In this document: positions 41,795-62,206 of the stretch, one piece after another
Layout of the letters: every line of letters starts with the position of its first letter
How positions within the stretch are numbered: position 1 is the stretch's first letter
Translations under genes and position numbers: made by a program
From: Harmothoe impar
Taxonomy: Eukaryota; Annelida; Polychaeta; Phyllodocida; Polynoidae
Length of the DNA stretch: 64,000 nucleotides
Assembly: GCA_947462335.1 (NCBI GenBank)
Contig: OX381715.1
Coordinates: 36,494,650-36,558,649 of the forward strand
Reading direction: 5' to 3'
Notes under the pieces: generated by a model
The model's database searches: none
What the model was told of the DNA's origin: nothing
What the model saw: the letters and a program-made list of their open reading frames with translations, nothing else

Positions 41795-42096
41795 TTATGC
41801 AGGAATGACCAGGATGCAGGGGTTGAGGGTGACCGCATACTTCTCCTGATGGAAGTAAAAGTTCTTGTGCGGTTCTTTCTGCTGGATGAGGCCGGCAGCC
41901 TTCAGGAGCCGCTCGTTGTCGTTACACCAGTTATTGAGGGTCTGGGTGCCCACAGGGGCACAGGTCGCTACGATGATCTCCGTGGTGGGCTTCTTCCACA
42001 GGTTCTTGTTCTCATCGCTAAGGATGCACAAGCCGTATGTGACTGGCGGGTCGAGGGCATCGGGGTCACACACAATGTCCCCCGGGAACCGACAAC
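41795..42096 (-). CDS. Gene 2 exon 3: six-cysteine C-terminal domain of a secreted protein
   Basis: The exon opens after a strong acceptor (TTCTCCCTACAG) and supplies two bases that complete the glycine codon left by exon 2. It encodes 99 residues starting CRFPGDIVCDPDA and ending NPCILVIPA-stop. Six cysteines (C-x7-C pattern at the start, one near each of GLC, ATC and NWC, and a last one in NPC) suggest three disulfides in an extracellular module. An FYFHQEKYAVTL strand-like segment precedes the end. I do not recognise the family. Codon use is GC-richer than the surrounding repeats. No clear AATAAA was found close downstream. Confidence 0.8.
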
Positions 42097-42276
42097 CTGT
42101 AGGGAGAATTAACACCGGGTTTGTGACACTCCAATACCATGTGCATCATGTAAATCATGATTTGAGATTACCCTTTTTTTTAAAATAATTTTATGTTTTA
42201 ATAAAAAATTATGCCCACAAATATTGGCATAGGTACCAAATTAAAGCTTATATAGGCCTAGTTGAGGTTTACTCAC

Positions 42277-42651
42277 CGTTCTCGTCGATGTAAGGTATCT
42301 TGATAGGGACCAGCTGGTGGTCGTGTTGGCCACGACTGTGTCCATGGTTATGGCCCTGGTTCTGTCCGTTTCCCCCTCCGTATCCACCGCCGTGGTGTCC
42401 CTGCTTCCCACCTTGCCCGTATGCCTGCTGGTTGTTGCCATAGTTACCGTTGTTGTTGTTATCATAGTTGTTGTTGCCATAGTTGTTGTTGTTGCTGTAG
42501 CCGTTGTTGTTGCGATAGTTGTTGTTGCCGTTGTTGTTGTTGTTGTTGTAGCCGTAGCCATAACCTGCACTCTTCCCTTGTACCTTAGTAACGGCACTGG
42601 TTCCCGTTACCTTGGTAACAGCAGCTGATGCGTCAACCAGACAGGCAGCAG
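42277..42651 (-). CDS. Gene 2 exon 2: Asn/Gly/Tyr-rich low-complexity region
   Basis: Opens at a pyrimidine-rich acceptor (CCTTTTGCTGCTTGCAG) and ends at an AACG|GTGAGT donor, 180 bp before exon 3. The first residues complete a signal peptide (AAACLVDASA, cleavage expected after DASA). A repeated VTKV segment follows, then about 40 residues made almost wholly of N with G and Y. A GQGGKQGHHGGGYGGGNGQN Gly/His/Gln stretch and a final QLVPIKIPYIDENG linker close the exon. Such Asn/Gly/Tyr composition is known from structural and adhesive extracellular proteins, but no specific role can be assigned. An alternative acceptor at 42676 would keep the frame and lengthen the hydrophobic segment; the site chosen gives a normal signal peptide. 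Confidence 0.8.
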
Positions 42652-43852
42652 CTGCAAGCAGCAAAAGGACAAGAGCTCAAAGCAGTGTCACTTCAATGTG
42701 AACTCACTTTTTAAGGTGGCATGGTCCGATGGTTAGGACTCCAAATAATTTCTTTAAAATGAACCAGAACGTCCAATATGACCAGCCTTCATTTGCTACC
42801 TACTTTATAAAACATTGTTCACTCGAATTCAACTTAGAACTCCGCTGGTTATCAGTTTCATGCTCAATTTTAGACTTTTGGAATGCACACTATAACTCCG
42901 CCCACTAAAAATACACTAGCTATAAAAACACTAAACCTTTGCTCATGGGACCCTCTAAACTGGCTCTTATCACCCATCAAAGATATTTTATTGTGTCACA
43001 TCCTCCAAATATGATACTGCAATAACATTCAGGACCCATTTAAATAGAATTTAAAATACGGACAAAAGCGGGCCATGTCACTTTAAGGTCTTTTTGTTAG
43101 TGTTATTTTAAGGGCACTCTGACTTTCAGAGAGTTCAGTCCAACTTTGACTTCTTAATCCATTAAAGGCAGAATAGCGCATTAATAGCAGCAATCGAGTT
43201 CCTCTAAATACTATTGAGAGTCAGTTTTCTCTGAAGATTATGGGGGATATGCATGCATGCTAGGAGGTCACTGTCAGATGGGAAAAGAGGAAGAAAGGCG
43301 AGGTATGGGGGACAGAGCCCTCCATGACATAAATATGTAGTAATAAGACCATTACTACAATGGTTACTGATAGAAGAGACTGGAGAATGAATGGCGCCCC
43401 CTAGAGTGATAATGTTAAGTCAACCAATTTTACTGAGAATATCTGTAATCCAGTACGGTGAAACACAGTTAATTCATTTACGGTGAAGCTATGTCTTGTA
43501 AAAATATTTCGTTGAATATACAAAGAATCAATGTAAAATTTTACGGTGGATCATCATTATGTATTATTACAGTGGGGCAATGTAAAATTGATCAATTTTA
43601 CTTTGAATATCCGTAATTCAGCACAGTTTTTTTACAGTGAAACACAGTTTATTTATTTCACGGTGAAGCTTTGTTTAATTGATGTTTAGTTTGATCACAC
43701 CAGGTGGCAGTTTGGTTAATGAGGAGATTTTCATGGATGCTAGGAACACCATTTTTTTGGTGGTAAGAAAAATATAAAGATAAACAGCTGTAAGGTTTGC
43801 TCTGTAGCCATCCAAGAGTGACTTCTTCCCATGGAGTGGCATTACAAAGTGT
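42652..43852. other. Intron 1 of gene 2, part left of the provirus
   Basis: Contains a block at 42715-43085 resembling 29290-29640, and at 43440-43680 repeated ACGGTGAAACACAGTT / ACGGTGAAGCT words that look like an eroded MITE. No exon seen. Confidence 0.55.
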
Positions 43853-43938
43853 TGTCATACAAGGAATCCCCTTAGTTGGGAGATCCCTTTAATATGAGGA
43901 AGTTGAGTAAGTCTTGAGGTCTTGTAGTATAGTTGGTA

Positions 43939-43944
43939 TTTATT
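43939..43944 (-). terminator. Polyadenylation signal AATAAA in the 3' LTR
   Basis: Minus strand GTAATAAATACC, about 260 bases downstream of the TATA box and 87 bases before the LTR end. The same motif in the 5' LTR is at 56830-56835. Confidence 0.7.
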
Positions 43945-44201
43945 ACAAGTTGACAGCAACAGTACAGTAGTACAATGTAGGTTCCACTCAGTTACACCTA
44001 TCCACACAATAATATAGGTCTTGGTAAATATACCTAATAACCCTGAGGTTAGTACTGGACTAGAGCCAAGGGGGTCCTACACCATGTCTGATAGTTGGGC
44101 CTAGTAGGGCATAGCCTATAGCCTTGTTCTCAGTCAGTGGAGAGGTCCTTGCTCTGTGGTGTCCAAGTGTAGAGTGAGGATGGAGATGTGAGAGGCTGGG
44201 G

Positions 44202-44207
44202 TTTATA
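44202..44207 (-). promoter_or_regulatory. TATA box of the 3' LTR
   Basis: CCCCTTATAAACCCC on the minus strand, within GC-rich surroundings. Initiation is expected about 30 bases further on. This copy could drive transcription out of the element toward gene 2 exon 2. Confidence 0.7.
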
Positions 44208-44396
44208 AGGGGCCCAGCCCTCAGCTTGGTCTAGACAATGTTAGAGGGCTTGTAAGTGTCAGGGAGACAGTCACACAATACCCCTCCATAGTCTGAATAC
44301 CCCTGTTAGTGTACATCAAGGGAGGTGACCCTTATGCTGGTCTGTGGGAACAATGGTCCCCCTAGCTAACAGTGGGAAACAATGTGCGGGATGAGC

Positions 44397-44472
44397 GTCG
44401 CCTGGCGGCGACGGGAGTGCCGACTGGAGCGCCGCCTATGCGGGCCGGCGGCGGCAGTAGCATCTGCCGCCG
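44397..44472. promoter_or_regulatory. CpG-rich double hairpin in U3
   Basis: GTCGCC-TGGC-GGCGAC (44397-44412) and CGGCGGCAG-TAGCAT-CTGCCGCCG (44449-44472) are perfect stems within about 110 bases of CpG-rich sequence at the start of U3. The rest of the element is CpG-poor. The same structures are at 57288-57303 and 57340-57363. A protein-binding or enhancer function is only a guess. Confidence 0.6.
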
Positions 44473-44507
44473 TTGGCGGTGTGCCCGCACCTGTCACATG
44501 ACAGGTG

Positions 44508-44517
44508 CCTCCCCCTC
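44508..44517 (-). other. Polypurine tract
   Basis: GAGGGGGAGG on the minus strand, four bases before the 3' LTR. This is where plus-strand DNA synthesis of LTR elements is primed. Confidence 0.75.
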
Positions 44518-46152
44518 GGAGAAAAGGACAACTCTCCGTCAGTTGTCATTCCATCTAAAAATTTGGGGTGAATTTTGGCATTTTATCCACAATTTTTGGT
44601 GGCAAATAGAATTTACCTTTTTGTTTTTGATTATTTTTTTTTTTGATAGTGAAGTACACTTTTTTTTTGTAATATAGATGATGTGAGAGTATGTAAATAC
44701 CAAAGGTCTGGGGAGAATTTTGGTTTTGTGCTTGGCTAGTCATCTACATTATATACAGTGTAATCTTAACTATAAGGTATGCAAACCTTCTTTGTACCAA
44801 CTTGGTACTTTCTTAACCACATAATTATACAGTGTAGTGATACATTGTGTCTTTAGCTGACACTTTTCAAATCATGGTTTGAGTTATATACACAGTATGG
44901 TACATCTTTGTCTTAATTCTAAAACATGATGAAAATGTGTTATCAAGTAATAGGCTGTCTTTGGTGAATAGGTGCTTTGTGGAACTGAGTGGATTTTGAT
45001 ATATCAATGTTCACATGTGAATACAAATATACAGGGTATAATGCAAATTATGCGAAATCTTATGATAATTATTACAAACTTTTTTGTTTGATACCAAAAA
45101 AAACCAAGGCCACTTTTATATAAAAGTAGGCCAACCGGCTTGAAGTTTGTTTTCTTATTTCTAGATAGCGCTTATCTATGGATTTGCGTGATATAGCAAT
45201 CAGTAATGTACATTTTATGCATAGTTATGTGCTTGTCCGGTGGCGGATAAGTGTTCATAATTGTGTCATCTGACATTTTGCATTACTTAAGTTTGTATGT
45301 ACAAATACAGTCCTTTTTATGCAGATATTTTGTCCTTATCCGGTGGAGGGTAAGTGTTCATAATGTCATGAAAATGACTCGGTATCTTGTTTCTGCATTG
45401 ATAGTTGAATCTTACAAGATTCTTGGTGTTGGCAATTTGCAACTTGTGGATCTACACTTTGATCAGAAATGTCTTTGCAGTGGGCCGCTGCTGTGAGATT
45501 TAAGTCTTTTGTGTAGTATCCTAGGGTTAGTCAGCGGACTATCTCCCTTTTTGCTTCATGTTTTTCTGTAAATAGTCTTACATAATACAAAGGTATACAG
45601 TGTAAAATACAGTGCAAATACAGTGTTATATACAAACATGTTTGATTAGCAATTTAGATTGTAATAATACAATTTCATACATATAAATGCATGTTTGAGC
45701 AAGTTTGACATGGTTAAGAGTACGCAATTGTTTTTGTAAAACTTCGATTTTTCAAAATTGGCTGTTTCATCTTGGGATACCTTAAAATTGATTCCCTGAT
45801 ACTACTGACACACACTGAGACCTTGCTTTGACCTTGGGATTGTGAGAGTTTGAAAATTTTGCACCTTGAGCAGATTTTTGAGTGGCACCTTGAGTCTATT
45901 GTGTCATGCGGCGCAAGATGCGTAGTGTGCCGCGGTGACACCGGTGGTTGACACCTTTTTGGTGAGCAGATCATGTGCCTTCTCATGGACTTGTCACCTG
46001 AAGTGAGGGGATCACTTCAGAGGGTGAACAGTGTCATTTGGGGGTTGGGGAGGGGTTATAAAGGCTGTGTGGACCACAGTAGGGTCACTTATTCCTTGAG
46101 TACCCTTGAAATAACACAGTATGGCGGATACGGCAATTTTGTATAATTATGC
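44518..46152 (-). other. Element 3' non-coding region between env and the LTR
   Basis: 1.6 kb of AT-rich sequence without a convincing frame. TGTCCGGTGGCGGATAAGTG near 45235 recurs as TATCCGGTGGAGGGTAAGTG near 45338. A 90-codon minus frame at 45714-45986 has no recognisable motif. Confidence 0.6.
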
Positions 46153-48771
46153 TTATTCTTCCCCATGTACTTTCTCACTAGTTACAGCTGTAGGTGGTTG
46201 GGTGAGTATGGTGAGTACATTTTTGAATGTGTTGGTGCTCTCTCTTTGGTCGTCGATTATGATGTTTTCCAGCTTTGACTCATGGGTATCCATGGTGACG
46301 GGCTGGGGTGAAATGTCATTCTGTAGTAACATGGCAAAATCTAAATTGGGTTCCCTGAGCGCTGGTATTATGCTGAACCTGGCACGCCATGGTAGATTGA
46401 TAGTTTCTGGCAGTAAATATGCGGTCTCTCCTTTCTTAGTAGTAATTACTACTGGTCCATTCCATTCAAATACTAGTCTTGGGAGAGGGTACATTTTGAT
46501 AATCATATCTCTGTATGTTGGGGCTGAAGCTTTTATAATTGTATCAAACTCATGTGGCACTGGACGCAAGGGGAAGGAGAAGCTGGTGTCTCCTTTGTAG
46601 ACTTTTAGTACTACTGTGGGATTTGTCCTCTTTGTGACTTTTCCCTTTCCACAGTGCTTGGTTGCCATACTCTTTAGGTATTTGGTCAGCCTGTAGGCTG
46701 AGTAAATGGTGAGTGTGAATAGTATGGCTATGATAAGAGTATGGGTCTCATGGATAGTTAGAATAGGGCTGGGGCCCTGTTCTATTGGTGCCGTGGTGGT
46801 TTCCTTCTGGTATAGGGTTTCGAAGGCTTTCTCCATAGGCTTCTCTGTGACAAATCTATATGCTTTTGCAGTTGGCATATAAGCTAGTAGTGTGGATCCT
46901 CTGTGCATTTTGAACAGGGTGTATGTGGCCAAAATTGTAGCTATAACCGAAAGTATCATTGGTATGATAGATGCTGCTGGATGCCGTGCAAATTTGTATA
47001 GATAGGACTCTATTAGTCTATTTTCCAGTGGCTTAGCCAGGCTGGAGGCATCATCTAGCAGGGTTTTTGCGAATGGGTTTAGGTCTAGTAATGTTGATTC
47101 ATCAATATTACTTGATTTCCTTAACATATCCAGTGTCCTGGATAGGTTGACCTTTGGAAAAGGTGGCAGATTTGCCTTGGAGTCTGGTCCAATTTCTTTG
47201 ATTTCATTTAGAGCCGCGAGAAAAGGTAGGTTTATAGTCTCCAAAGCATAGTGAAATGAAATTGTAGTGTTGCATGGCAACCTAGAATTTGGTAGTGAAT
47301 AGTGATCTATATTCACTGTACATAGGCATGGTACACCTATGATTGAGTGTGATGGTGCTTTGTGAGTAGTAGCTGGTTTCCCGTGACACGTAACTGTGTA
47401 GGTGGGAGAATTTGTGGTCACAAGATATTCATCTTGTGAAATGGCTACAGCGTGTGAGATAGGTCTCTTCAAGGGTGAGATAGTAAATTGGCACATTTCC
47501 TTGACTTGCTGAGCTTGGTTCAAATAAATTGCTACTGTGCATGTAGGTACATGTCTATGGATTCTCGGGCTAGTTTTGGTACAAATTTTGATCTTAGTTC
47601 CTGGACAGGTTAGCATATCTGCATTTGTTAGTTCAATAAATAGTGAACCATCTTCAGAGATAGCCAAGAATTTGACATCAGTAATTAATTGGGTTACTCC
47701 CTTTGTAGGTGTCTCCTTGGTGTTGATTGGTACTGGTGTAGTTACGAGTTGAAATACTCTGAAGGTGGAGACGGTGGATGCTACAATGATATCCAGGTGG
47801 ATGTATATGTGCCATTCCGAATAGGTGTAGGATATCATTCTTTGGGAATAATAGTAGTCAAGGTCAGTTATGGTGACCTTTGATCCTGGTGAGTGTATTC
47901 TGAGTGTCATGTCCAGATCATTCAGATGCTCCGTTAGTTCAGCTGGTGGTACTATGTCAGCAGTCATAATGCCTGCTGATAGCATCCTGAGTGCTGATGT
48001 GGTGCGCTGCAATGCTTGCAGATAGTTCATTCTTGCTACAATAATGGTGAGTGCATCAGTTAAAATTTGGATCTTCCTTCTTTGTGTGTGCTCGTGATTT
48101 GCATAAGTGTTCAGAGATGTGGTCATATTTTGAGCCCATAAATTCATATTTTGGCCTAGAGTGTTCATGGTTTGGTCTAGCATACTTTTATCCTTAACAT
48201 ATGCCTTGACAAATTTGTCTTGGCGTTGTGTGACCTTATCAATTAATATAGCTGCTTCTTTGTCTTGCTTGGAAAAAGCTTCTAGAATGCCGTCTATGTT
48301 CTTTATCTGGTCCATGACCTCTTTGACGTCATCTAGTGTGGCAAGACCTATTGCTCCTCTGAAGAGTGGGGCTAGGAACCCAAGTGGTGCTCTTCTGTAC
48401 CTTCCTTGACTATTAATTGGATTTGATAGGAACAAATGGATGGATGCTAAGGTAGAGTTAATTTCCTTGTCTGTTATGTCTATCAACAGATCTAGTTCCC
48501 TTGCTTGCTGTAATATCTGACTGGTAGAACTGTCGTCATGCAGGGTAGGAAATGTCAGTGCCATAACCTGGTCCAGTATTTTGGTTTCGGTCTCTGGTGG
48601 AGCAGGTATATGGTATGGTATTGCCAATATCATGGTTGTGGTATCGTGCCCATTGACCAATGGTTCAGGTAATGGCTCATATATGGCTCCAACGTTTTGT
48701 CTAACGGTGGGCACATATGTGATGGCTTGAGAAGTGGCCATCATCACTAGTAGTAGGATTGGCTTTAGCAT
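46153..48771 (-). CDS. env: Env: baculovirus-F-like class I fusion glycoprotein of the element
   Basis: 872 residues from an ATG at 48771. Residues 1-16 form a signal peptide ending SQA. A furin-type site RYRR lies at 124-127, directly before a hydrophobic Ala/Gly/Leu-rich fusion-peptide-like segment (128-146). Helical heptads follow at about 150-265. A cysteine-bearing region spans 389-500 with eight cysteines. A transmembrane helix is predicted at about 601-621 (IIPMILSVIATILATYTLF). This order matches the Baculo_F family used by insect errantiviruses. A second hydrophobic segment at 677-695 and a further 175 residues after it are unusual. The frame is uninterrupted. Expression is probably from a spliced mRNA, as an acceptor lies just upstream. 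The family assignment rests on architecture only. Confidence 0.82.
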   Translation of the reverse strand: MLKPILLLVMMATSQAITYVPTVRQNVGAIYEPLPEPLVNGHDTTTMILAIPYHIPAPPETETKILDQVMALTFPTLHDDSSTSQILQQARELDLLIDITDKEINSTLASIHLFLSNPINSQGRYRRAPLGFLAPLFRGAIGLATLDDVKEVMDQIKNIDGILEAFSKQDKEAAILIDKVTQRQDKFVKAYVKDKSMLDQTMNTLGQNMNLWAQNMTTSLNTYANHEHTQRRKIQILTDALTIIVARMNYLQALQRTTSALRMLSAGIMTADIVPPAELTEHLNDLDMTLRIHSPGSKVTITDLDYYYSQRMISYTYSEWHIYIHLDIIVASTVSTFRVFQLVTTPVPINTKETPTKGVTQLITDVKFLAISEDGSLFIELTNADMLTCPGTKIKICTKTSPRIHRHVPTCTVAIYLNQAQQVKEMCQFTISPLKRPISHAVAISQDEYLVTTNSPTYTVTCHGKPATTHKAPSHSIIGVPCLCTVNIDHYSLPNSRLPCNTTISFHYALETINLPFLAALNEIKEIGPDSKANLPPFPKVNLSRTLDMLRKSSNIDESTLLDLNPFAKTLLDDASSLAKPLENRLIESYLYKFARHPAASIIPMILSVIATILATYTLFKMHRGSTLLAYMPTAKAYRFVTEKPMEKAFETLYQKETTTAPIEQGPSPILTIHETHTLIIAILFTLTIYSAYRLTKYLKSMATKHCGKGKVTKRTNPTVVLKVYKGDTSFSFPLRPVPHEFDTIIKASAPTYRDMIIKMYPLPRLVFEWNGPVVITTKKGETAYLLPETINLPWRARFSIIPALREPNLDFAMLLQNDISPQPVTMDTHESKLENIIIDDQRESTNTFKNVLTILTQPPTAVTSEKVHGEE

Positions 48772-48790
48772 GCCTGAAATATAAAATATA
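48772..48790 (-). promoter_or_regulatory. Candidate env splice acceptor
   Basis: The minus strand reads TTTTATATTTCAG|GC immediately before the env ATG. Errantiviral env is made from a spliced transcript, so the position fits. The donor was not identified. Confidence 0.55.
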
Positions 48791-49861
48791 TTCTATGTCT
48801 TAGTAAGACTTCTACTAGTGTTTTTGCAATATACTTAGGTTTAAATTGGTTTGCTGATTTTGTGAGCTATCCTTTTTGCTTATGTGAAGTATCCACTTGG
48901 CACTGCCTCTGTGTACATAGTTTTTGAGAGCAGAAATCCTGGTTGGTCCCAATAGTAATATAATAATCAATGTAGTGTTTGAACTGTACCTTTTTCCATG
49001 ATCAAGCTAGTGTTGGCTTAATGTCCAATCTGTGCTAGAGTCCTTTCCCAAGATTGTAGTAACTGGGTATGATATTGTAGAGTGGGTGTGGTCTGCTTTC
49101 TGACAGAGTCCCTCCTACTATAGGAGAACTGGTATGGCTAGGACCAGCTGGTGTGTACCTGACTGCTGCAGGAGTAGAACTGGTGAGTTGGCTATGGAGT
49201 CAGGGCATCTTATGTAGCCCACCCTACCCTCATCCATTGAGGGCCTGGCTTTGTTTCCCTGATGGCTGGTGCCGGCCATCAGTGTCAGCTGACTGACTGG
49301 GGTAATTATGTCTGGGGTAATTAGTGTGGACTACCTGCATCTGTGGGGGTTTGATTTCCCTGGCAGGTGTGTGGGTCCTTTGAAGGGTAAGGGTGTGTCT
49401 AGACAGTAGTCTCTTGGCATAGCACGCTCTGTTTCATGTACTTTACAGGATTTAGGTTCAAACATTTTCATTGTGCATTCTTCAAGGATGCTAGCCTTTG
49501 ATGCGAAAATATGATAATTGTGGTTTCTTCAAGCTTGGGTTGCTAATCCCTTTAGGTAGTCTCTTTTGGCTTTTGTGTGTAGCCTTTCGGGTTTCAGACT
49601 TCAACCCTGTAGTAATCTGTCCTTTGATTCTACTTTGTGTGCACATTGTTTTTGTAACCTATATAGTGTATATTGTCCTTTTCTGTCCTTTGTGTGGGTT
49701 CATATCCTATGCTGATATGAAATCCCTACTTATCATTCATGATTTGGACAGTTGTTGGAAAATTGATTTCCTTCATATGGAGTGTGTATACTTATTTGAC
49801 TATTATTCATAGTCTGTGGGTATAGATATTCCATATGATCATGTCAATATATAAAAGTAAT
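48791..49861 (-). other. Spacer between pol and env
   Basis: About 1.07 kb with no minus-strand frame of interest. The forward frame at 49498-49812 is hydrophobic by composition and antisense to the element, so not called. Confidence 0.6.
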
Positions 49862-52800
49862 TTACTTAGATATTCTCCCTTGCCTGGAGTTTCTTTTCAC
49901 CTTGTGGTGGGCTGGTCTGGGTACTATTTGGTTTAGACCAACTGACTCTTTGGTGAGTGTGATTTGGGATTTATCCCTTGTTATCCTGTGGATAAACTTT
50001 GAGGTGTGGGGAATGAGTCTGTGTGCAAACTCATTTTTCCTCAGTGTGGTGACCTTTTTGAGCCTATCAATATGTACTGGTCTGGGGACTAGTAGGTTAT
50101 TTGATAGGTTCTTCAACCTTGCGCTGGTTGGGGTTGGTCTTTCTGCAACAACATATGGTCCCATGAATAGGGGTTGAAGCTTCTTTGAATCTGTGGTCAA
50201 CAGAATTCTGGGAATGTTGATATATACAATATCTAGTGGAAGTATAGCTTGTGGTGTAAGCTTTTTGTCATATCTTGACTTCCTTCCTTGTTGTAGCTTT
50301 TTGACTCTGTCTATTGCCTTTCTTCTAGACTCATCTTGAGACAGTATCATTCCAGATACATGCTCTGCTACTGTTTTGATTTCTTCCTCTATGTTTAGGG
50401 CAGTTTCTACAATGGTTTGAGGGTTTCTGCCATGAAGTAGGAAGAATGGTGTGTAACCTGTTGTCTGGGACTCTGTGTTGTTCAATGCAAATGTAATTGA
50501 TTCTATATACAGGTCCCATGTTTTCTGATTCTGAGAACAGAAAGTCCTTAATGCTGTTCCTATACTGGCATTGAATCTTTCCACTAATCCATTTGATTGT
50601 GGTCTATATGGACTTGACAGGTCGTGTCTTATCTTCTGGGTGTTCATCAGTTTCTTAAAATTGCTGCCTGTGTAGCAGGTGCCATTGTCAGTTTGAACTG
50701 AAGTTGGTACACCTTGCTGACATATGACGTTCTTGTAGAACTCATGTTGTGTGGTTTCTGCTGTGAGATCCTTTGTGGCATATGCTATGACATATCTAGT
50801 TGAATAATCTATGCAAACTTGTATGTGTTTGTTTTTCCTGGCTGTTTCTGGGAGTGGTCCCACAGCATCTAAGTTCAGGTGCTTCATGGGGGTTGGCATA
50901 TAGTCCCTTACAGTCATTGGTGTTTTGTGGGTGTGCACTGCCCTTTTTGCTTTTAGGCAAGTGTCACATGTTGACACATACTGATTGGCATCAGCCATCA
51001 TAGATTTCCAATATACCCTAGGTATGAGAGAAGACATCATTTTTGAAGTACCTACATGACCTGCCATTGGTGAGTCATGGAAGTGTTGCAGTATGTTTTC
51101 AACCCAAGTTTTTGGGACTACAACTTGTAGTGGTACTGTGTCTGTTTTTCTCCATGATGTAGGGGATATGTGTACTAGAATGTTGTCTAGGAGTAGGTAA
51201 TGCTGAGCATTATTCCTAATCCTTGTTGCTTCAGTGCTTTTTACAGGTAGGTCACCTTTCTCTAGGTAGTCTATAATGGGTATTAGTCCAGTGTCCTTCC
51301 TTTGTTCTTCTTTCAACAGTGTGGAGTTGATTGAACTGTCTGGGATTTGGTCTAACATCTGGTCTAATTCCATTATATGCTGTGCCAGCCTTTCTTTGTC
51401 TTTCTCTGCCTGGATTGTTTCAGGAGATTTTGGTGCAGGTCTGGTCTTTGTCTGTTTCTTTGGTTGTTCAACTGCTATGTCTGTGTTGACTGTCTGCTCC
51501 TTTGAACTGGCTGCTCCTCTGTTTGTGCTGGTGGAGGCGGCCTTTGTTCTTTTGGGATGGGGGTCAGATTTGTTTTTGTGAGCCTTCTGTGCAGTACCTG
51601 CTCTGTCTGAGTGCTTCTGCAAATTGGCTGTGGGTGTGCTGGGTGTTGAAATGGGGGATTTAGTAGGGAAAGAGGATTTGGTTGACACTTTGTTCTTTTT
51701 GGCTTTTAGGCCTAATTGCTGAGGGTGGTCATTAGACCTTGTATCCTCTGCAACCGACCGTTTTGCTTTTGAACGTGTGGTGACAACACAAATGTCTCTG
51801 TCCTGTTCTTCCTCCATATCCAGCTGTTCTTTTGCAAATCTGACTACCTTGGTGATTGAAGCAATTTTATGCAGTTTTTCTTCCAACTGATTTTCTGATG
51901 CACTGTGTGGTGGTTCACGAGGTGTGGTTTTCACCATCTGTGCAATCCTGTTGGTCTCAACCGGGGTAAAACAGTTTTCTGGATACTCTTCACAGTATTC
52001 CCTTTCACAATGACAGAACACATAATGGGTGGTCTCTTTTAAGATACCTCTGATCACTGGTTTTGGTCTGTCAATTGCTTTTGGTGGGTCATCTCTGTTG
52101 AATGGTATCTTGGTTTGGATTTTAGAGAATTTGGTTCTGGTGGCTGCCCTTTTCCTTCTTGGAGGTGGTGGGGGGTTGGTCATTGGTGGTGCATCTGGAT
52201 ATTCTCTTCTTGACATCACATCTGGAGGAATGTTGTCATCTCCTTTTACGTGTTGTATTGTGAATGCAAATTGTTGGATATCCAGTGCCCATCTGGCCCA
52301 CCTGTGGGTCAAACCTGTGTTTGTGAGGAGTGGTATTAGAGCTGCATGATCTGTGTACAACTGAAAGTGTCTACTTTCTAAGTAGTGCCTAAAATGTAGT
52401 ATCCCATATACTACACCTAGTAGCTCTCTTTCTGTTGTGTTGTAGTTTCTTTCATGCTTTGATAGTGTTCTACCTGCGAAGGCTACTGGTCTCAGTACTC
52501 CTTCACTACTGCGTTGTGATAGAACAGCTCCTATGCTCACATTTGAAGCATCTGTTGCTAGACTGAATTCTTTGTCATAGTCTGGGTATCTCAATAGTGC
52601 ATGGGTACAGAGTGCATGTTTCAATGTTTTGAAAGCATTGTCTGCATCCTCATTCCATTTGAAAACCTTTAGGTTTGTTTGTAGGTCGTACAGTGGCCTA
52701 GCAATATTGGCATAGTCTTTGATGAACTTTTTGAAGTATTGGCATAGTCCTGTGAATGATCTGACTTGTTTCACGGATTTTGGGGTGGGAAAAGTTTTGA

Positions 52801-54667
52801 CACTTTCCACCTTTTCTGGGGATGGTTGTAAACCATCTGGTGTGACACGCATTCCTAGAAAATCTATCCTATCTGTGAAGTATTCACATTTTGATTTCTT
52901 TAGCTTGAGTTTCCCAATTCTCAGGCTTTTGAAGACATCTTCAAGGTCTGAAAAATGTCGTTCTACATCTGGTGATAGGACTAGAATGTCGTCTAGGTAT
53001 GGTAGGGCACATTTGTATTTCAGTTTGTTGAGAATTAGAGTTACTAGATGGCAAAATCCTGCCGGCGCGGTAGCCAAACCCATCGGCATCTTTTGATAGA
53101 CATACTTTTTGTCATTTGCTATGAAAGCAGTTTTGTGTTGATCCTCCCTTCTTATGGGAATTTGGAAAAACCCTTGTTGCGCATCTAGTTTACTGAAAAC
53201 AGTAGGTTTGAGTGACCCTATCATGTCTAGTGTGTCGTCTGCACGTGGCGTTGATAAAGCTTGGTTTATCATATTAGCATTGACGTGGCGTAGGTCTGTG
53301 ACTAGACGTTGGCCTCCAGATGCTTTCTGTACTAAAAATGATCTGGATGCCCAGGGTCCCTCTGCACATTCTCTGAGGATGCCCTGTCTGACTAGGTCTT
53401 CACAGACTTCTCCCATCTTAGCTTGCTTCTCAGGCGTCTGCCTGTATGGTAGGTAGTGACATGGTACTGCATCTGGTTTGATGTGAATTGAATGTGTATA
53501 TAGGTGGGTTGTACCTATGTCATTGTCTTTTCCTACAAATACATCTTGATACTTGTGGAGTAACTTTTGGAGTCTCTCTTGTCCAATATCTGTTAGTACA
53601 CATTTTGGTGGCACATTCTCCATTATGTCTGGCATAATGTCATGAGCCTCACTGTGAATTGTGGCCAATTCATCATCAGTGTCATCTCCACGGTTTGTAT
53701 CTGGATCTGCATATACTGAGGCACAGTCTGACTCTGTGTCACTACAATTCTCTTCAGTGTCTAGCACCTGTAGTGTGGGTTCCTCAGTAGGGATGTCAGC
53801 ATCTGGTTGATGTAACTCAGAGGGATCTACCTCTGTGAATAAGGCTATTATATCACCCTTCCTCACCTTGTATGGTCGGTGGCTTGTATTGAGCAGTATG
53901 ATTGGGTGCCTGTTCATTTCTGAGGGTGTTACTACCCCCTTTTGAACTAGGTATGGAACTCTGTTGTTCCTCTGCAAATTGTCTAATGTGCCTACACATC
54001 CTTCTAAACATTTGAGGGATGTGACTTGCCCTAGAACTGCTAGTTCTGTGAAAGGAAGGATTGTAGCCTCCCTAACAGCTCGGACTGGCTTGACTTGTAG
54101 CTCTGGGTCTACATTGAATTCGATCTGTGATCGTGTTGCTTTTAAGAAATCTGTGCCTAGGACAACTGGCTTTGTGAGATTTGGAATAATTGAGAATGGG
54201 AATTCGAATCTGGTACCATGAATTTTGAATTTCAATACTGCTGCTTGTCTTACATGGCATATGGATCCGTCTGCTAAGTGTACATTGAACTTTCTCTTTT
54301 TGATTTCTACATCTCGAGATTTCTGAATTTCCCTAAGAAAAGTATCCCTGACACAGGTGATAGTGGCACCGGTGTCAACTAAACAAGGTATTTCAGTGTG
54401 TTCATAGAATCTTGCATTTAAACAGCCATTTTTAAGAAGTTCAACAGAAATTTTGGTACTCTCACCCATTTCCTTTTGCGATGCATCTTGTTGAGGTGTG
54501 ATATGAATCACTGATGGTCGGCTTGATTTCCCTGTATGTAACTGGGGGATTGTCTCTGCTATACTAGCAATTGTCTTTGGTTGTCCTAGGGGTTGTTGAT
54601 CTTGGATCTTGATGGGGGGTTGGAGAGGCTCACAACGCACTGGCCCAGCGGCGCTGTGGGTCTCTAG
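49862..54667 (-). CDS. pol: Pol polyprotein: protease, reverse transcriptase, RNase H, integrase
   Basis: About 1,600 residues reached by -1 frameshift from gag; no ATG opens the frame. Numbering from the first GTG at 54640: aspartic protease LVDTGAT (Asp89) with a later VVLGTDFL; reverse transcriptase with Asp486 and YLDD at 548-551; RNase H with Asp697, Glu739, Asp764 and Asp807; integrase zinc motif H1188/H1195/C1225/C1228; catalytic D1258, D1318, E1354 with the D-35-E spacing; GPYVVAE at 1494, the GPY/F module. There is no chromodomain. Between RNase H and integrase lies an unusual 330-residue Lys/Ser/Thr/Pro-rich spacer with a CHCEREYCEEYPENC cluster. All catalytic residues are present. 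It makes, matures and inserts the element's DNA. Confidence 0.95.
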   Translation of the reverse strand, partial: LETHSAAGPVRCEPLQPPIKIQDQQPLGQPKTIASIAETIPQLHTGKSSRPSVIHITPQQDASQKEMGESTKISVELLKNGCLNARFYEHTEIPCLVDTGATITCVRDTFLREIQKSRDVEIKKRKFNVHLADGSICHVRQAAVLKFKIHGTRFEFPFSIIPNLTKPVVLGTDFLKATRSQIEFNVDPELQVKPVRAVREATILPFTELAVLGQVTSLKCLEGCVGTLDNLQRNNRVPYLVQKGVVTPSEMNRHPIILLNTSHRPYKVRKGDIIALFTEVDPSELHQPDADIPTEEPTLQVLDTEENCSDTESDCASVYADPDTNRGDDTDDELATIHSEAHDIMPDIMENVPPKCVLTDIGQERLQKLLHKYQDVFVGKDNDIGTTHLYTHSIHIKPDAVPCHYLPYRQTPEKQAKMGEVCEDLVRQGILRECAEGPWASRSFLVQKASGGQRLVTDLRHVNANMINQALSTPRADDTLDMIGSLKPTVFSKLDAQQGFFQIPIRREDQHKTAFIANDKKYVYQKMPMGLATAPAGFCHLVTLILNKLKYKCALPYLDDILVLSPDVERHFSDLEDVFKSLRIGKLKLKKSKCEYFTDRIDFLGMRVTPDGLQPSPEKVESVKTFPTPKSVKQVRSFTGLCQYFKKFIKDYANIARPLYDLQTNLKVFKWNEDADNAFKTLKHALCTHALLRYPDYDKEFSLATDASNVSIGAVLSQRSSEGVLRPVAFAGRTLSKHERNYNTTERELLGVVYGILHFRHYLESRHFQLYTDHAALIPLLTNTGLTHRWARWALDIQQFAFTIQHVKGDDNIPPDVMSRREYPDAPPMTNPPPPPRRKRAATRTKFSKIQTKIPFNRDDPPKAIDRPKPVIRGILKETTHYVFCHCEREYCEEYPENCFTPVETNRIAQMVKTTPREPPHSASENQLEEKLHKIASITKVVRFAKEQLDMEEEQDRDICVVTTRSKAKRSVAEDTRSNDHPQQLGLKAKKNKVSTKSSFPTKSPISTPSTPTANLQKHSDRAGTAQKAHKNKSDPHPKRTKAASTSTNRGAASSKEQTVNTDIAVEQPKKQTKTRPAPKSPETIQAEKDKERLAQHIMELDQMLDQIPDSSINSTLLKEEQRKDTGLIPIIDYLEKGDLPVKSTEATRIRNNAQHYLLLDNILVHISPTSWRKTDTVPLQVVVPKTWVENILQHFHDSPMAGHVGTSKMMSSLIPRVYWKSMMADANQYVSTCDTCLKAKRAVHTHKTPMTVRDYMPTPMKHLNLDAVGPLPETARKNKHIQVCIDYSTRYVIAYATKDLTAETTQHEFYKNVICQQGVPTSVQTDNGTCYTGSNFKKLMNTQKIRHDLSSPYRPQSNGLVERFNASIGTALRTFCSQNQKTWDLYIESITFALNNTESQTTGYTPFFLLHGRNPQTIVETALNIEEEIKTVAEHVSGMILSQDESRRKAIDRVKKLQQGRKSRYDKKLTPQAILPLDIVYINIPRILLTTDSKKLQPLFMGPYVVAERPTPTSARLKNLSNNLLVPRPVHIDRLKKVTTLRKNEFAHRLIPHTSKFIHRITRDKSQITLTKESVGLNQIVPRPAHHKVKRNSRQGRISK

Positions 54668-56448
54668 TTTCCCGAGTTTGAAGATCCTAGTAGCTGCTTG
54701 ATCTGTTGAAGCACGTCAGGCTGGATAGCTTGAGGTGGCTGTTGGGGCTGCTGTTGGGGGTTGTAGCCTTGTGTGTTGGATCTGTAGCCATTGTAGCTGT
54801 CTCGACCTCTGCTGTTGTCACGACTGCGGTTGTAGTCATGCTGTCTGTCACGACTATTGCTGTAGTCACGACGGTTTTGATCCCGACCTCTGTTGTAGTC
54901 ACGATCTCTGCTCTGGTCACGACGGTGGTAATCACGGTCTCTGCTGTTATCACGGCGATTGTAGTCGCGATTTCTGCTACTATCACGGTGTCTGCTGTTG
55001 TCACGACTTCTGCTGTTATCTCTACGGTTGGTGTCCTGACTGTTGCTTTGGTGATCTCGGCTGTTATTTTGGCTGTATCCACCTCTGCCTCGTTGTCCTC
55101 CTCTGTTGCTATTTCTGAAGTTTGGGTCAAAGTTTTTGCCTCGGTAGCCTCCTCTGTTATTTCCAGAGTTCCTTTGTTGGCTGTTGTTGGGTTTACCTTG
55201 ATCCTTCAGTGCCCTTTGTTCTTGCCTCCTCACATGTTCATTTGACATGAGGTTTAGGCTTTGATCTTCATCCTCTGATGAGTGATCCATTTGAACTGTC
55301 TTTGGGTCTGATTTGGCTTTCTTTGAGGGGTTTCCATTTTTCTGTGACTTTGTTTGCTTCACAATCATAGAGTTTACATGTGTCACAGACTTCAGTTGTG
55401 CCTGCATGGATTCTATTGTTTCCTGTAGCTCTGAGCCTAATTCTGCTTTTATCTCATCTTTAATGTTACCAGTGGAGACTGTTTGTTGGTTCTCATACTC
55501 CTCTGCAACTTCAAGTATTTTATCCCATGTAGTTGCTTCCCTGTGGATGACTACTGCACTGATGTCGTCCCTTAGACCATGTAGCAGGGCTTCCCTTGTT
55601 CTCTCCTCGGACTTGTTGTGAGCTGTGGCCATCTTTTGTAAGGCCATGGCATAGTCTGATACAGATTCTTTTGGATTTTGCTTCCTCAATGCCTTAGCAT
55701 CAAATCTGTCGTCCTCCTTCTTGAAGTATTTCAGGAAAGCTGCCTTCATTTCTTCATAGTCTGCTGTTGGATGGGCTGTCCTATAGGCTTTGTACCAAAC
55801 TTTTGCCTTACCATCTAGGTAGTTTGAGAAATACTTGATTCTGTTACTGGGATGGTACCCATATCTGGAATCAAAGTATTGTTCATAGTCTGTGCAGTGC
55901 CTCCTGGCGGATTGTGTGAGAGAGGACTGTGAAAATTTTTCTGGCTGTAGAATATCACAGTACTTTTCCTCTTTGTCTCGTTTTAGCTGGTCCCTTAACC
56001 CACTGAAAGATGCCTCCCTTGCAACTCTTTCCTCTTTCAAGGCATCTAGGAGTGCTGAGGAGGTGTCAGTGTTAGTCAGGTTCACTCCTTGGGTATTGGG
56101 TGCACCTGACTTGAGTGAGGCTAGGGCCTCAGCTAGCTGGTTTTTCATTGTCACTTGTAGATGAGCTTGCATATCAAGTAGTGCTTGAGCGGCTTCAGCT
56201 TTTTGGGTCTCCATAGAGTTCTTCAGTGCCTGGTTGGCTTGTCTGAGTAATATTAATTCCTTCTCTTGTTCCTCTTTGGCCTTCCTTAAGGCTCGGCTGG
56301 TGCTTTCCTCATGTGTGGTGTGTAGGGCTGTTAGTTCAGGCCTAAGTGTCTTATCCACATGAGTTTCTACATTCTGGGCTATGAGTAGAAGTGCCTCAGC
56401 CTCCTCTTTGGCTGCCTGGCCTGGGGGTACTGTCTCATCGTCACTCAT
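54664..56448 (-). CDS. gag: Gag structural protein without zinc knuckles
   Basis: 594 residues from the first ATG of the frame at 56448. The N-terminal 130 residues are acidic then coiled coil (EEEQEKEL-type heptads). The middle (about 165-340) matches the retrotransposon capsid pattern: a KFSQSSL start, YFDSRYGYHPSNRIKYFSNY, LDGKAKVWYKAY, AFLKYFKKEDDRFDAK, ALLHGLRDDIS. The C-terminal 170 residues hold RGG and GGYRG boxes, then more than a dozen RD/RRD/SRDR repeats, and end in a Gln/Pro-rich tail. No CCHC knuckle is present, so RNA binding is inferred to rest on the Arg/Asp repeats. The frame stays open upstream for about 100 codons to the primer site, without an ATG. It ends inside the frameshift signal to pol. 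Confidence 0.9.
   Translation of the reverse strand: MSDDETVPPGQAAKEEAEALLLIAQNVETHVDKTLRPELTALHTTHEESTSRALRKAKEEQEKELILLRQANQALKNSMETQKAEAAQALLDMQAHLQVTMKNQLAEALASLKSGAPNTQGVNLTNTDTSSALLDALKEERVAREASFSGLRDQLKRDKEEKYCDILQPEKFSQSSLTQSARRHCTDYEQYFDSRYGYHPSNRIKYFSNYLDGKAKVWYKAYRTAHPTADYEEMKAAFLKYFKKEDDRFDAKALRKQNPKESVSDYAMALQKMATAHNKSEERTREALLHGLRDDISAVVIHREATTWDKILEVAEEYENQQTVSTGNIKDEIKAELGSELQETIESMQAQLKSVTHVNSMIVKQTKSQKNGNPSKKAKSDPKTVQMDHSSEDEDQSLNLMSNEHVRRQEQRALKDQGKPNNSQQRNSGNNRGGYRGKNFDPNFRNSNRGGQRGRGGYSQNNSRDHQSNSQDTNRRDNSRSRDNSRHRDSSRNRDYNRRDNSRDRDYHRRDQSRDRDYNRGRDQNRRDYSNSRDRQHDYNRSRDNSRGRDSYNGYRSNTQGYNPQQQPQQPPQAIQPDVLQQIKQLLGSSNSGN
54667..54673 (-). promoter_or_regulatory. -1 ribosomal frameshift site between gag and pol
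   Basis: G-GGA-AAC in the gag frame, immediately followed by the gag stop TAG, is a canonical X-XXY-YYZ slippery heptamer. Seven bases downstream CC-CA-CAGC-GCC-GCTG-GG can form a short hairpin with one bulge. The pol frame is open from 54715, so it overlaps gag by about 50 bases in exactly the -1 phase. Confidence 0.85.
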
Positions 56449-56726
56449 ACCTGATCCTGGGGTATGCTGACCGTTTGAGAACAAGTCACTCTGTGTGTCC
56501 TGGATACTGTCCAGGGCAGCTAGGGTGTCCAGGTGAAGCTTGCCTTGGAAGTCACTCTCTTGAGTGGTGTGGTGTGGTGAAGCTGAGGGTGTTGGAGTGG
56601 AGCTCCTGGATGACTCCTTGGAGCTGGGTCTCCTCCTCCTGCTGGGTAGAGATCCAGGGGTAGCTGGTCCTTTGCCGGGGAGGTGAGTCTTGGTAGTCTG
56701 TGCTGCCAGCTTGTGGGATCTTGTTA
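56449..56726 (-). other. Leader between primer site and gag ATG
   Basis: 278 bases in which the gag frame has no stop and no ATG. A donor for the env mRNA or a packaging signal would be expected around here, but none is assigned. Confidence 0.55.
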
Positions 56727-56740
56727 GGACTTCTCCACCA
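56727..56740 (-). other. Primer binding site candidate
   Basis: TGGTGGAGAAGTCC on the minus strand, three bases after the 5' LTR. TGG complements the CCA end of a tRNA. I cannot say which tRNA has the matching 3' end. Confidence 0.6.
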
Positions 56741-56743
56741 CTT

Positions 56744-57394
56744 TGTCATACAAGGAATCCCCTTAGTTGGGAGATCCCTTTAATATGAGGAAGTTGAGTA
56801 AGTCTTGAGGTCTTGTAGTATAGTTGGTATTTATTACAAGTTGACAGCAACAGTACAGTAGTACAATGTAGGTTCCACTCAGTTACACCTATCCACACAA
56901 TAATATAGGTCTTGGTAAATATACCTAATAACCCTGAGGTTAGTACTGGACTAGAGCCAAGGGGGTCCTACACCATGTCTGATAGTTGGGCCTAGTAGGG
57001 CATAGCCTATAGCCTTGTTCTCAGTCAGTGGAGAGGTCCTTGCTCTGTGGTGTCCAAGTGTAGAGTGAGGATGGAGATGTGAGAGGCTGGGGTTTATAAG
57101 GGGCCCAGCCCTCAGCTTGGTCTAGACAATGTTAGAGGGCTTGTAAGTGTCAGGGAGACAGTCACACAATACCCCTCCATAGTCTGAATACCCCTGTTAG
57201 TGTACATCAAGGGAGGTGACCCTTATGCTGGTCTGTGGGAACAATGGTCCCCCTAGCTAACAGTGGGAAACAATGTGCGGGATGAGCGTCGCCTGGCGGC
57301 GACGGGAGTGCCGACTGGAGCGCCGCCTATGCGGGCCGGCGGCGGCAGTAGCATCTGCCGCCGTTGGCGGTGTGCCCGCACCTGTCACATGACA
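56744..57394 (-). repeat. 5' LTR of the element
   Basis: 651 bp, same boundaries as the left copy. TATAAA is at 57093-57098 and AATAAA at 56830-56835 on the minus strand. I saw no base difference from the 3' LTR on reading both. Confidence 0.95.
57093..57098 (-). promoter_or_regulatory. TATA box of the 5' LTR
   Basis: TTATAAACCCC on the minus strand. It would start the genomic RNA of the element about 30 bases downstream (near 57063). Confidence 0.72.
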
Positions 57395-57398
57395 GTGT

Positions 57399-60206: not shown

Positions 60207-61834
60207 TTGGGTCGTCAGAGGAGGTTTGTCGTCAGTATGGCTCCTAGGAAATCGGCAAAGAAGGCCGGGAAGAAGGCGGTGAAGGTTACAGCGGGGCAGG
60301 ACATTGAAGAAGGGGGCGTGGTCAACTCGAACATAATCTTGCAGCGGACTCAGGCGGCGCTGGCGGAATCAGAGGGTCATCTCGCGAGGGTTGAAGCCGG
60401 ATTTGATCGTCTGGTGAGGATGGTCTCCACTGTCCAGGATCACCTCGAGAAGCTGGCAGAGTTGAAGTCTTCCGAGGGCAGTCCCGAGGGTCGTCTCCCG
60501 AGCAGCAGCGGCGCAGGGGCAGTAAGCAGAGGTCGGAGGCGAGCAATGTGACTAGAGTCTATAGGGTGGGCTCATTGGTTTCCTATGACAAGAGTGTTCG
60601 GGAGAGGGCAGATGTGGTTGGTCCTGATGCTTTCGGCACAGTGCTAACCTCTGATGTTTTCAGGTTTTTCTCGTATGACAGCACAATTGTCTCGGCTGCT
60701 AAGACTAACAAAGCTAGGCCTAAGGCTGAGGGTACAAAAGAAAAGAGGCCTTGTTTTGCGTTGAACTAAGGGAAATGTGATATTGCTGGCTGTAAATATG
60801 CTCACAATTGTATCTTTTGTCGCAGTACCAGTCATGGGTCTATGACTTGCTCAACGGGCAAGTCGGATAAGTAGGATGGAAGGGGTATGCAGGTAGTTAG
60901 TGCCTTAAATGTGACTCCTGCTAATACCCGCCAAGTAGGTCCTGTAAAAAATTCTAAATTAAATCCAGCTGCCTCAGTGTTTGTCCCTAACCCTATTGGG
61001 AAGGGTGCTGGTGTTCTAGATATGTATGCAGGTATTTATGGCACTTATGATGAGGGTAAAGGTACCGGTATCGTGGTTCCTCTTAACAACATTTTAGAAG
61101 TTTCTACCCCCTGTGGTGATGTGGGTTAGGGTTATGATCTGAATCCAGAATGTGTACCGTTCGTCCCACGCCGGGCCATAGAGCAGGCGGGGGCGGCGCA
61201 GGGGGTAGTAGTAGATGACCCTGCAATTGTCGCTTTGAATCAGGCGCCTCTGGCTATTGAGCCACTGTCCCCGGAGGTGTCGGGGGACAGGGTTCTTTTA
61301 TTTTCCATTGATGGTGTAGGTTCTATGCCTACCGTACATGTGTATGATGATTGCCTCGGTGGTTCTTGTAACTGTGTTCATTATATTGGCTCAGAAAGAG
61401 CTCAGCTCATGCCATGCAGGTTTGCCCCATATATTTCTGGCAGTGCTAATGTATGTGTGGGTAGGACAGAGGAGGCTAAGTTCATTTGGGAAGGTGTGCT
61501 CCAGGGTTTTAGTATAATCGATTAGGGTTGTGATACCTCTTATTCATGTAAGAATTATAAAACCATATTGGAAGACCCTTTTTATTCTGAAATGTGTGAT
61601 ATTATTGAACGGGAACTCAAGGATGGATACATTACTAAGGTCTCTTCTCCTCCCCGGTGTGTGCACACTATGGGGGGGGGGGGTAGAAAATCTAATGGTA
61701 AACTTAGGCCTATCACTGACTGTTATATGCCGGAAACTCTGGCCATAAATAATTTCACTTATGAGCATTTTTCATATAATTCAGTGTATACGGTGGCTGA
61801 CCAGCTTGAACCTAATATATCCCACGCTATCTGA
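60207..61834 (+). pseudogene. Decayed DIRS-like retroelement: gag-like frame and start of reverse transcriptase
   Basis: The first frame (60207-60551, preceded by ATG GCTCC at 60238) is basic at its start (MAPRKSAKKAGKKAVKV) and then helical. It shifts near its end into a second frame that runs to 61834 with four in-frame stops (60767, 60871, 61127, 61523). That frame has a C-x7-C-x4-C-x3-H zinc-finger-like block (GKCDIAGCKYAHNC). Later come FIWEGVLQGFSIID, a KTILEDPFYSEM...ERELKDGYITKV stretch and GRKSNGKLRPITDC, which resembles the N-terminal reverse transcriptase region of DIRS-type elements (K.nGk.R.I.D.S). The catalytic part is missing and replaced by a tandem duplication. Family assignment is tentative; the copy is dead. 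Confidence 0.6.
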
Positions 61835-62206
61835 CAGTGAGTACGGTCAAGGCACATTGCGCCACAGTCACCAGTTGGTTATCAGGTGTATCAGTTTTGC
61901 CAGGGTCAAGAGCTAGGATGTGTTCACAGTGGTCGACTTTGACGGGTAGAGAAATCTAATGGTAAACTTAGGCCTATCACTGACTGTTCTATGCCGGAAA
62001 CTCTGGCCATAAATAATTTCACTTACGAGTATTTTTCATATATTTCAGTGTATACGGTGGCTGACCAGCTTGAACCTAATATATCCCACGCTATCTGACA
62101 GTGAGTACGGTCAAGGCACATTGCGCGACAGTCACCAGTTGGTTATCAGGTGTATCAGTTTTGCCAGGGTCAAGAGCTAGGATGTGTTCACAGTGGTCGA
62201 CTTTGA
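61681..62206 (+). repeat. 263-bp tandem duplication at the broken end of the DIRS-like element
   Basis: Units 61681-61943 and 61944-62206 start GGGTAGA and AAATCTAATGGTAAACTTAG and end CAGTGGTCGACTTTGAC. Only a handful of substitutions separate them, so the duplication is much younger than the stops in the element. Confidence 0.92.

What the first reader, a model, noticed from the sequence alone, without database searches (positions are those of the whole stretch)
43853..57394. Complete, young errantivirus-like provirus with env
Seen: two 651-bp LTRs that read the same, TGTCAT/ATGACA ends, 4-bp GTGT duplication, uninterrupted gag, pol and env, all protease, RT, RNase H and integrase catalytic residues in place. 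Known: env-bearing Ty3/gypsy elements with baculovirus-F-like envelopes are best documented as insect errantiviruses. Inferred: a structurally complete member outside the well-studied hosts, probably inserted recently and possibly still competent.
Basis: partly seen in the sequence, partly recalled or inferred. Interest (0 to 1): 0.9.

Follow-up and report, generated by a model that had tools for sequence, protein, structure and literature searches.

The report
Young envelope-carrying Ty3/gypsy provirus family
This is a retrovirus-like Ty3/gypsy element, likely inserted very recently, with intact gag, pol and envelope genes and many nearly identical relatives in the same (likely invertebrate) genome; its envelope is predicted to be a fusion protein of chuvirus or baculovirus type, and most sister copies examined carry an extra backward-facing gene, apparently kept by selection, that this copy has likely lost.

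Summary
The element lies on the minus strand: two 651-bp LTRs with 0 differences, GTGT duplication, open gag, pol (-1 frame, slippery GGGAAAC before the gag stop) and an 872-aa env. Pol is Ty3/gypsy. "Errantivirus" is not shown: no named errantivirus could be put in a tree, and the integrase keeps a GPY motif that errantiviruses reportedly lack. Env looks like a class I fusion protein; one of five relatives passes Pfam Baculo_F, and Foldseek on two low-confidence models ranks chuvirus-type glycoproteins above a mosquito baculovirus F. In the host genome 52 of 52 scored env copies are open (1417 first-look candidates), under strong purifying selection. New: a ~685-bp segment between env and 3' LTR holds most of a 202-aa antisense ORF, present in 29 of 29 top-scoring other env copies fetched, pN/pS 0.18, identical in protein at the 150 best places. 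The window copy and a second element lack it at the same breakpoint, so "complete" is true only of gag-pol-env. Kind: envelope-carrying metavirid, known across animals; variant features: likely chuvirus-like Env, antisense gene. Infectivity untested; host unnamed.

The parts
43849..43852 (.). target-site duplication GTGT, left
57395..57398 (.). target-site duplication GTGT, right
56744..57394 (-). 5' LTR (651 bp); TATAA at LTR position 297, AATAAA at 560
43853..44503 (-). 3' LTR, identical to the 5' LTR
56723..56740 (-). likely primer-binding site, beginning TGG three bases after the LTR; primer tRNA not identified
   Evidence: sequence; assignment inferred
44508..44517 (-). likely polypurine tract GAGGGGGAGG four bases before the 3' LTR
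   Evidence: sequence; assignment inferred
54664..56448 (-). gag, 594 aa from the first ATG; Retrotrans_gag and Ty3_capsid; RG/SRD-rich tail
54667..54673 (-). slippery heptamer GGGAAAC in the 0 frame directly before the gag stop, followed by a hairpin (z -2.15): predicted -1 frameshift site
49862..54715 (-). pol open frame (-1 to gag), 1617 codons: protease, RT, RNase H, a linker of roughly 350 aa, integrase with GPY motif
46153..48771 (-). env, 872 aa: signal-peptide-like N terminus, RYRR then a fusion-peptide-like stretch, 8 Cys invariant among 6 aligned sequences, hydrophobic TM segment at residues 609-627 of the 879-codon frame, C-terminal domain predicted beta-rich
48391..48402 (-). furin-type site RYRR (cleavage predicted)
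46139..46140 (.). junction where the ~685-bp segment with the antisense ORF is missing from this copy
46121..46150 (+). remaining start region of the antisense ORF (ATG kept; the frame now runs on antisense to env)

Best explanation
This is an envelope-carrying Ty3/gypsy provirus with identical LTRs, likely inserted very recently, of a large, nearly identical family in its host genome, and it likely spreads by copying itself and by infecting germ cells with virus-like particles whose Env is predicted to be a class I fusion protein of the chuvirus-G / baculovirus-F type. Shown: identical LTRs, duplication, open gag-pol-env, slippery site, many near-identical intact relatives, purifying selection on env. 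Predicted: -1 frameshifting makes Gag-Pol; env is made from a spliced RNA; cleavage at RYRR frees the fusion peptide. Inferred: particles bud and fuse with neighbouring or germ-line cells. Most siblings examined also carry an antisense gene between env and the 3' LTR, likely a regulator made from a separate antisense promoter, as in HTLV HBZ (recalled) or plant Grande gene23; this copy belongs to a sublineage that has likely lost it.
For: LTR identity and duplication; domains; slippery heptamer plus hairpin; Ty3 as best solved relative of Pol, E 2.1e-95; six env relatives at 88, 99 (partial), 57, 37, 34 and 36% identity, with 8 invariant Cys in the six aligned sequences and an R.[KR]R motif in four of five full-length ones, not in P0006; Baculo_F above cut-off in P0006, below it in P0007; Foldseek to viral models: 11 hits at E<=0.001 for the window Env (best 1.7e-15, chu-related virus glycoprotein; Culex NPV F 2.3e-9) and 13 for P0006 (best 3.2e-16; Culex NPV F 5.1e-9); best PDB match human metapneumovirus F, E 1.3e-3. 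52 of 52 scored env copies open at 879 codons. Among 29 other copies 90 synonymous and 15 nonsynonymous env variants, pN/pS 0.05. 6 of 11 LTR pairs compared have no mismatch. Antisense ORF: found in 29 of 29 (26 of full frame length), pN/pS 0.18, p 6e-6 (4e-4 at ts/tv weight 6), the only stop-free frame of six, identical protein at the 150 best-scored places of 504 candidates.
Against: No expression, particle or infection data. Both Env models are poor (mean pLDDT 42.9 and 41.7), TM-scores to the chuvirus-type proteins are 0.18 or less, sequence identity 12-15%, and no solved structure matches at E 0.001 or below. The window Env itself has no Baculo_F hit. Only weak splice-site candidates were found (donor-like AGGTA at 56452 and 56107, one acceptor at 49166). 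One sense frame of the antisense ORF also shows pN/pS 0.36 (p 0.006), though it has six stops. The antisense gene is absent from two insertions with mismatch-free LTR pairs (window and C2:52.1 Mb); it is partly deleted in the C6:47.3 Mb element, and the C7:64.1 Mb element has the segment but no long antisense frame was found there.
Confidence: 0.75

Rival explanations
1. It is an ordinary errantivirus in the wide sense of Chary and Hayashi: env-bearing gypsy elements with F-type Env, widespread in animals, with nothing unusual in its Env ancestry.
For: PMC13172572 (passages) and PMC12859917 (passages) report envelope-carrying gypsy elements across metazoan phyla; Baculo_F passes in one relative; Culex NPV F is among the fold matches.
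Against: GPY motif present although reported absent in errantiviruses; chuvirus-type glycoproteins outrank the baculovirus F in both fold searches; LTR ends TG..CA rather than the AGT..ACT that I recall for insect errantiviruses.
Confidence: 0.45
2. Env is no longer used for infection: the family moves only inside germ cells and env is kept merely because the burst is young.
For: Copies are so similar that little time has passed; no infection evidence.
Against: Variants that did arise are strongly biased to synonymous ones (90 to 15); in five of 29 comparisons made, the window env differs by 24-30 synonymous and 6 nonsynonymous changes, so selection acted before or between bursts; env relatives at 33-55% aligned identity keep the same organisation. 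The 52 and 30 copies are the best-scored ones, so decayed copies would be missed.
Confidence: 0.2
3. The antisense ORF is a passenger or chance frame, not a gene.
For: No Pfam, PDB or viral-contig relative; missing from two insertions with mismatch-free LTR pairs and partly deleted in a third element; no transcript data.
Against: Only stop-free frame of six; pN/pS 0.18; 16 of 28 variable sites at third positions; base composition unlike env and pol (GC 0.545); identical protein at the 150 best-scored places.
Confidence: 0.15
4. Identical LTRs reflect assembly collapse or gene conversion rather than youth.
For: Long identical repeats are prone to both (general knowledge).
Against: LTR variants across the family are 83-99% alike to the window LTR, yet 6 of 11 pairs have no mismatch within the pair; four-base duplications can be read by eye in the window and in four other pairs.
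Confidence: 0.05

Closest known systems
Envelope-carrying gypsy elements of metazoans (Chary and Hayashi 2025, eLife 108449; not held, known here only through citing papers)
   Same: LTRs, gag-pol, third env frame of fusion-protein type, copies in an animal genome
   Different: whether any has this RT clade, this Env type or an antisense gene could not be checked
Insect errantiviruses (gypsy, ZAM, 17.6; PMC12992720 passages; details partly recalled)
   Same: gag-pol-env order, 4-bp duplication, pol in -1 frame (last two recalled for errantiviruses)
   Different: 13.5 kb, TG..CA ends, GPY motif in integrase, Env of 872 aa with an extra C-terminal domain, antisense gene in siblings
Anakin elements of mosquitoes (BEL/Pao with chuvirus glycoprotein; PMC7642597 passages)
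   Same: LTR element whose env is, here likely, a chuvirus-like glycoprotein
   Different: Anakin is BEL/Pao; this is Ty3/gypsy. PMC10084718 (passages) found no clear evidence of Jingchuvirales glycoprotein capture by Gypsy elements
TelKA elements of bdelloid rotifers (PMC5408684 passages)
   Same: retrovirus-like LTR element with a class I fusion protein related to negative-strand RNA viruses
   Different: TelKA Env is paramyxovirus-F-like, about 600 aa; no relation to this Env was tested
Plant Grande / RIRE2 / Retand antisense aORFs (PMC7264820 passages) and HTLV HBZ (recalled; the passages mention an HTLV antisense promoter)
   Same: antisense ORF between the sense genes and the 3' LTR
   Different: different hosts and lineages; no sequence relation was tested, and the antisense ORF here has no Pfam match

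Membership tests
Metaviridae (Ty3/gypsy) | protease-RT-RNase H-integrase order in Pol | tested here: met
Metaviridae (Ty3/gypsy) | Pol nearer to Ty3 than to retroviruses among solved structures | tested here: met
   Ty3 2.1e-95; best non-Ty3 entry ('Enzymatic polyprotein') 1.6e-38
Metaviridae (Ty3/gypsy) | single Ty3-type RNase H, no second retroviral RNase H | tested here: met
   RT_RNaseH models at one place only, no RNase_H model at E<=0.1
Errantivirus | RT inside the errantivirus clade | not testable with these tools
   no named errantivirus sequence available; FastTree places it in an unnamed clade of 21, support 1.0
Errantivirus | no GPF/Y motif in integrase (reported in PMC12440569) | tested here: not met
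   GPY 1519-1521 invariant in 12 of 12
Errantivirus | third frame encodes an F-type Env | tested here: inconclusive
Baculovirus-F-type Env | matches Pfam Baculo_F | tested here: inconclusive
   window Env no; of 5 relatives 1 above cut-off, 1 below it, 3 none
Baculovirus-F-type Env | signal peptide, basic cleavage site followed by fusion peptide, conserved Cys, TM | tested here: met
   by motif and hydropathy; relative P0006 lacks the R.[KR]R motif
Chuvirus-type glycoprotein | fold match over most of the length | tested here: inconclusive
   top ranks in two searches, but low-confidence models and TM-scores <=0.18
Chuvirus-type glycoprotein | sequence-profile homology to chuvirus G | not testable with these tools
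   no chuvirus glycoprotein sequence at hand
Lokiretrovirus | dual RNase H | tested here: not met
   definition from PMC9040795 passages
Recent insertion | LTR pair near-identical with target duplication | tested here: met

The most novel reading that the evidence does not exclude
A currently spreading invertebrate retrovirus of the Ty3/gypsy lineage took its envelope from a chuvirus-like negative-strand RNA virus and evolved an HBZ-like antisense regulatory gene, with one sublineage, that of the window, spreading after losing that gene.
Probability: 0.35. Interest if true: 0.8.

Novelty: new variant of a known kind. Interest (0 to 1): 0.6.

Why it matters
Envelope capture and antisense regulation are two hallmarks of infectious retroviruses. 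A young, high-copy family that shows both in a Ty3/gypsy background, with a sublineage lacking the antisense gene, would allow direct comparison of how the antisense gene affects spread and how Env is inherited between RNA viruses, baculoviruses and retroelements.

Tried and rejected
Lokiretrovirus or Retroviridae: rejected, single Ty3-type RNase H and Ty3 as nearest solved relative. Echinoderm host (would contradict the absence reported in PMC13172572): rejected, COX1 reads Lys at sites that I recall as conserved only if AAA is Lys; the vertebrate code breaks the frame. Two mitochondria from doubly uniparental inheritance: unlikely, the two COX1 proteins match at 244 of 499 aligned columns, more like a second organism. 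Viral-contig relatives of Env: 140 pattern stretches, none confirmed; of the antisense ORF: 3, none confirmed. Host RT loci L001-L008 gave no match to this Pol in my script. Rfam and tRNA scans of the window: nothing. Primer tRNA: not identified. Env structure for a fine fold comparison: both models too poor.
Full report
Observation. The finding at 43853-57394 is real. Two 651-bp LTRs differ at 0 of 651 positions, end in TGTCAT...ATGACA and are flanked by GTGT on both sides. The element is on the minus strand. Its open frames are gag (54664-56745, first ATG 56448), pol (49862-54715) and env (46153-48792, ATG 48771). The pol frame is -1 to gag; the heptamer GGGAAAC sits in the 0 frame right before the gag stop and a hairpin follows (-23.2 kcal/mol, z -2.15), the usual layout of a -1 frameshift site (prediction). 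Pfam finds Retrotrans_gag and Ty3_capsid in gag and protease, RT, RNase H, H2C2 and rve in pol.

Lineage. The best solved relative of Pol is Ty3 (E 2.1e-95). Of 832 database relatives of the RT-RNase H part, the best 120 were listed; 119 of them passed my coverage rule and went with the query into a FastTree tree. The query falls in a clade of 21 with support 1.0, nearest P0010 (98%) and P0011 (77%). The integrase keeps GPY (1519-1521, invariant in 12 of 12); PMC12440569, section 17, says that errantiviruses lack GPF/Y. I therefore file it as an envelope-carrying Ty3/gypsy element, not as an errantivirus in the strict sense.

Env. Six relatives were found at E<=0.001; five were aligned, P0005 (99%, 505 aa) was left out. 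The protein has a signal-peptide-like N terminus, RYRR followed by a hydrophobic stretch, eight cysteines invariant in the six aligned sequences, a hydrophobic TM segment and a conserved C-terminal domain; a second hydrophobic segment passes my cut-off in P0006, P0007 and P0008 but not in the window protein or P0004; P0006 lacks the R.[KR]R motif. Pfam Baculo_F is over its cut-off in P0006, under it in P0007, absent in the other three relatives and in the window Env. Two AlphaFold2 models, of the window Env and of P0006, have mean pLDDT 42.9 and 41.7. Foldseek against viral models gives 11 hits at E<=0.001 for the first: ten glycoproteins or uncharacterised proteins of RNA viruses, four of them named chu or mivirus in their records (that the others are chuvirus-like is mostly recalled), and the F protein of Culex nigripalpus NPV (2.3e-9). 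The second gives 13, again led by such glycoproteins (three named chu), with the same baculovirus F, an abalone herpesvirus protein, Sunshine Coast virus F0 and one RdRp that is probably noise. TM-scores to the chuvirus-type proteins are 0.18 or less. In PDB the best is metapneumovirus F, E 1.3e-3, none at 0.001 or below. I read this as a class I fusion protein, with chuvirus-type G as likeliest nearest kin. PMC7642597 (passages) describes BEL/Pao elements with chuvirus glycoproteins; PMC10084718 (passages) saw no clear capture by Gypsy.

Family in the host. The window is C13:36494650-36558649 of a 1.51-Gb, 736-contig genome. Env: 52 copies scored of 1417 first-look candidates, 52 of 52 full-length and open, 99-100% identical; these are the best-scored ones. 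In 30 fetched copies the window differs from the other 29 by 27-36 of 2640 bases; these differ among themselves by a median of 14 (3-34); variants among the 29 are 90 synonymous and 15 nonsynonymous, pN/pS 0.05; five of 29 comparisons with the window gave dN/dS 0.06-0.08. LTR: 46 matches from 40 scored of 1049 candidates; apart from the window only the C7:64.1 Mb element is 99% alike, the rest 83-98%. By eye I count 15 LTR pairs about 13-21 kb apart in that list, window included; ten of the other 14 were fetched. Mismatches within pairs, window included: 0 in six of 11, otherwise 1, 1, 3, 3, 6, with gap columns in three (four of the alignments touch an end of a fetched piece, so part of those LTRs may be missing). 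The C7 copy has a broken env. So several LTR sublineages seem to have inserted recently.

Antisense gene. In 29 of 29 other env copies, but not in the window copy, a ~685-bp segment follows env. On the opposite strand it holds most of a 202-aa ORF whose ATG lies just outside it: 26 copies with the full 204-codon frame, two with 202, one with 176. Across the 26, 18 synonymous and 11 nonsynonymous variants give pN/pS 0.18, p 6e-6, and 4e-4 when transitions are weighted sixfold. It is the only stop-free frame of six; one sense frame with six stops has pN/pS 0.36, p 0.006, the others 1.0-1.2. Its GC is 0.545, against codon-position values of 0.38-0.50 in env and pol. The genome search lists its best 150 of 504 candidates, and all 150 encode the identical protein; variants exist among the fetched copies, so the list is the conserved end. 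No relative was found in Pfam, PDB (best E 0.74) or viral contigs. The element at C2:52.1 Mb, with a mismatch-free LTR pair, lacks the segment at the same breakpoint; the C6:47.3 Mb element has part of it deleted; the C7:64.1 Mb element has the segment but no antisense frame of 170 or more codons turned up there. Since the start codon remains in the window, loss is likelier than a first gain elsewhere (inference). PMC7264820 (passages) describes such antisense ORFs in plant elements and an antisense promoter in HTLV; the words animal and metazoa do not occur in it. My paper searches listed no animal case by title or the part of the abstract shown; only 15 of 274 and 3 of 3 papers were listed, so that is not proof of absence.

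Host.

Verdict. A young, structurally intact gag-pol-env provirus of an abundant and probably still active family; a known kind, with two variant features, a chuvirus-like Env (likely, not proven) and an antisense gene under purifying selection that this copy lacks.

Noticed in passing
G000:C466:6400-8200 (L061): A second, full-length COX1 on a 21,441-base contig, identical to the main COX1 at only 244 of 499 aligned columns: probably the mitochondrion of another organism in the sample, flatworm-like from memory.
   Followed up: partly
window 7942-9399 (-): Intact 485-aa coiled-coil-like ORF without a Pfam hit over cut-off; relatives of 74% and 60% identity exist, the first on a contig of the same length (2,990,890) as a Pol relative, P0015.
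   Followed up: partly
window 42269-42676 and 41795-42145 (-): Secreted-looking N/Y/G-rich frame followed by another open frame, possibly exons of a matrix- or shell-type protein.
   Followed up: no
G000:C2:109.63-109.83 Mb: Four antisense-ORF copies spaced about 66 kb apart on the same strand, as if a segment holding an element had been duplicated in tandem.
   Followed up: no
window 61681-62207: Tandem duplication of a 264-bp unit, 97% alike, that may be part of a polymerase gene.
   Followed up: no
Pol residues ~830-1195 (window ~51130-52230, minus strand): A linker of roughly 350 aa between RNase H and integrase with a C.C motif (C901, C903) invariant in 12 aligned sequences, function unknown.
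   Followed up: no
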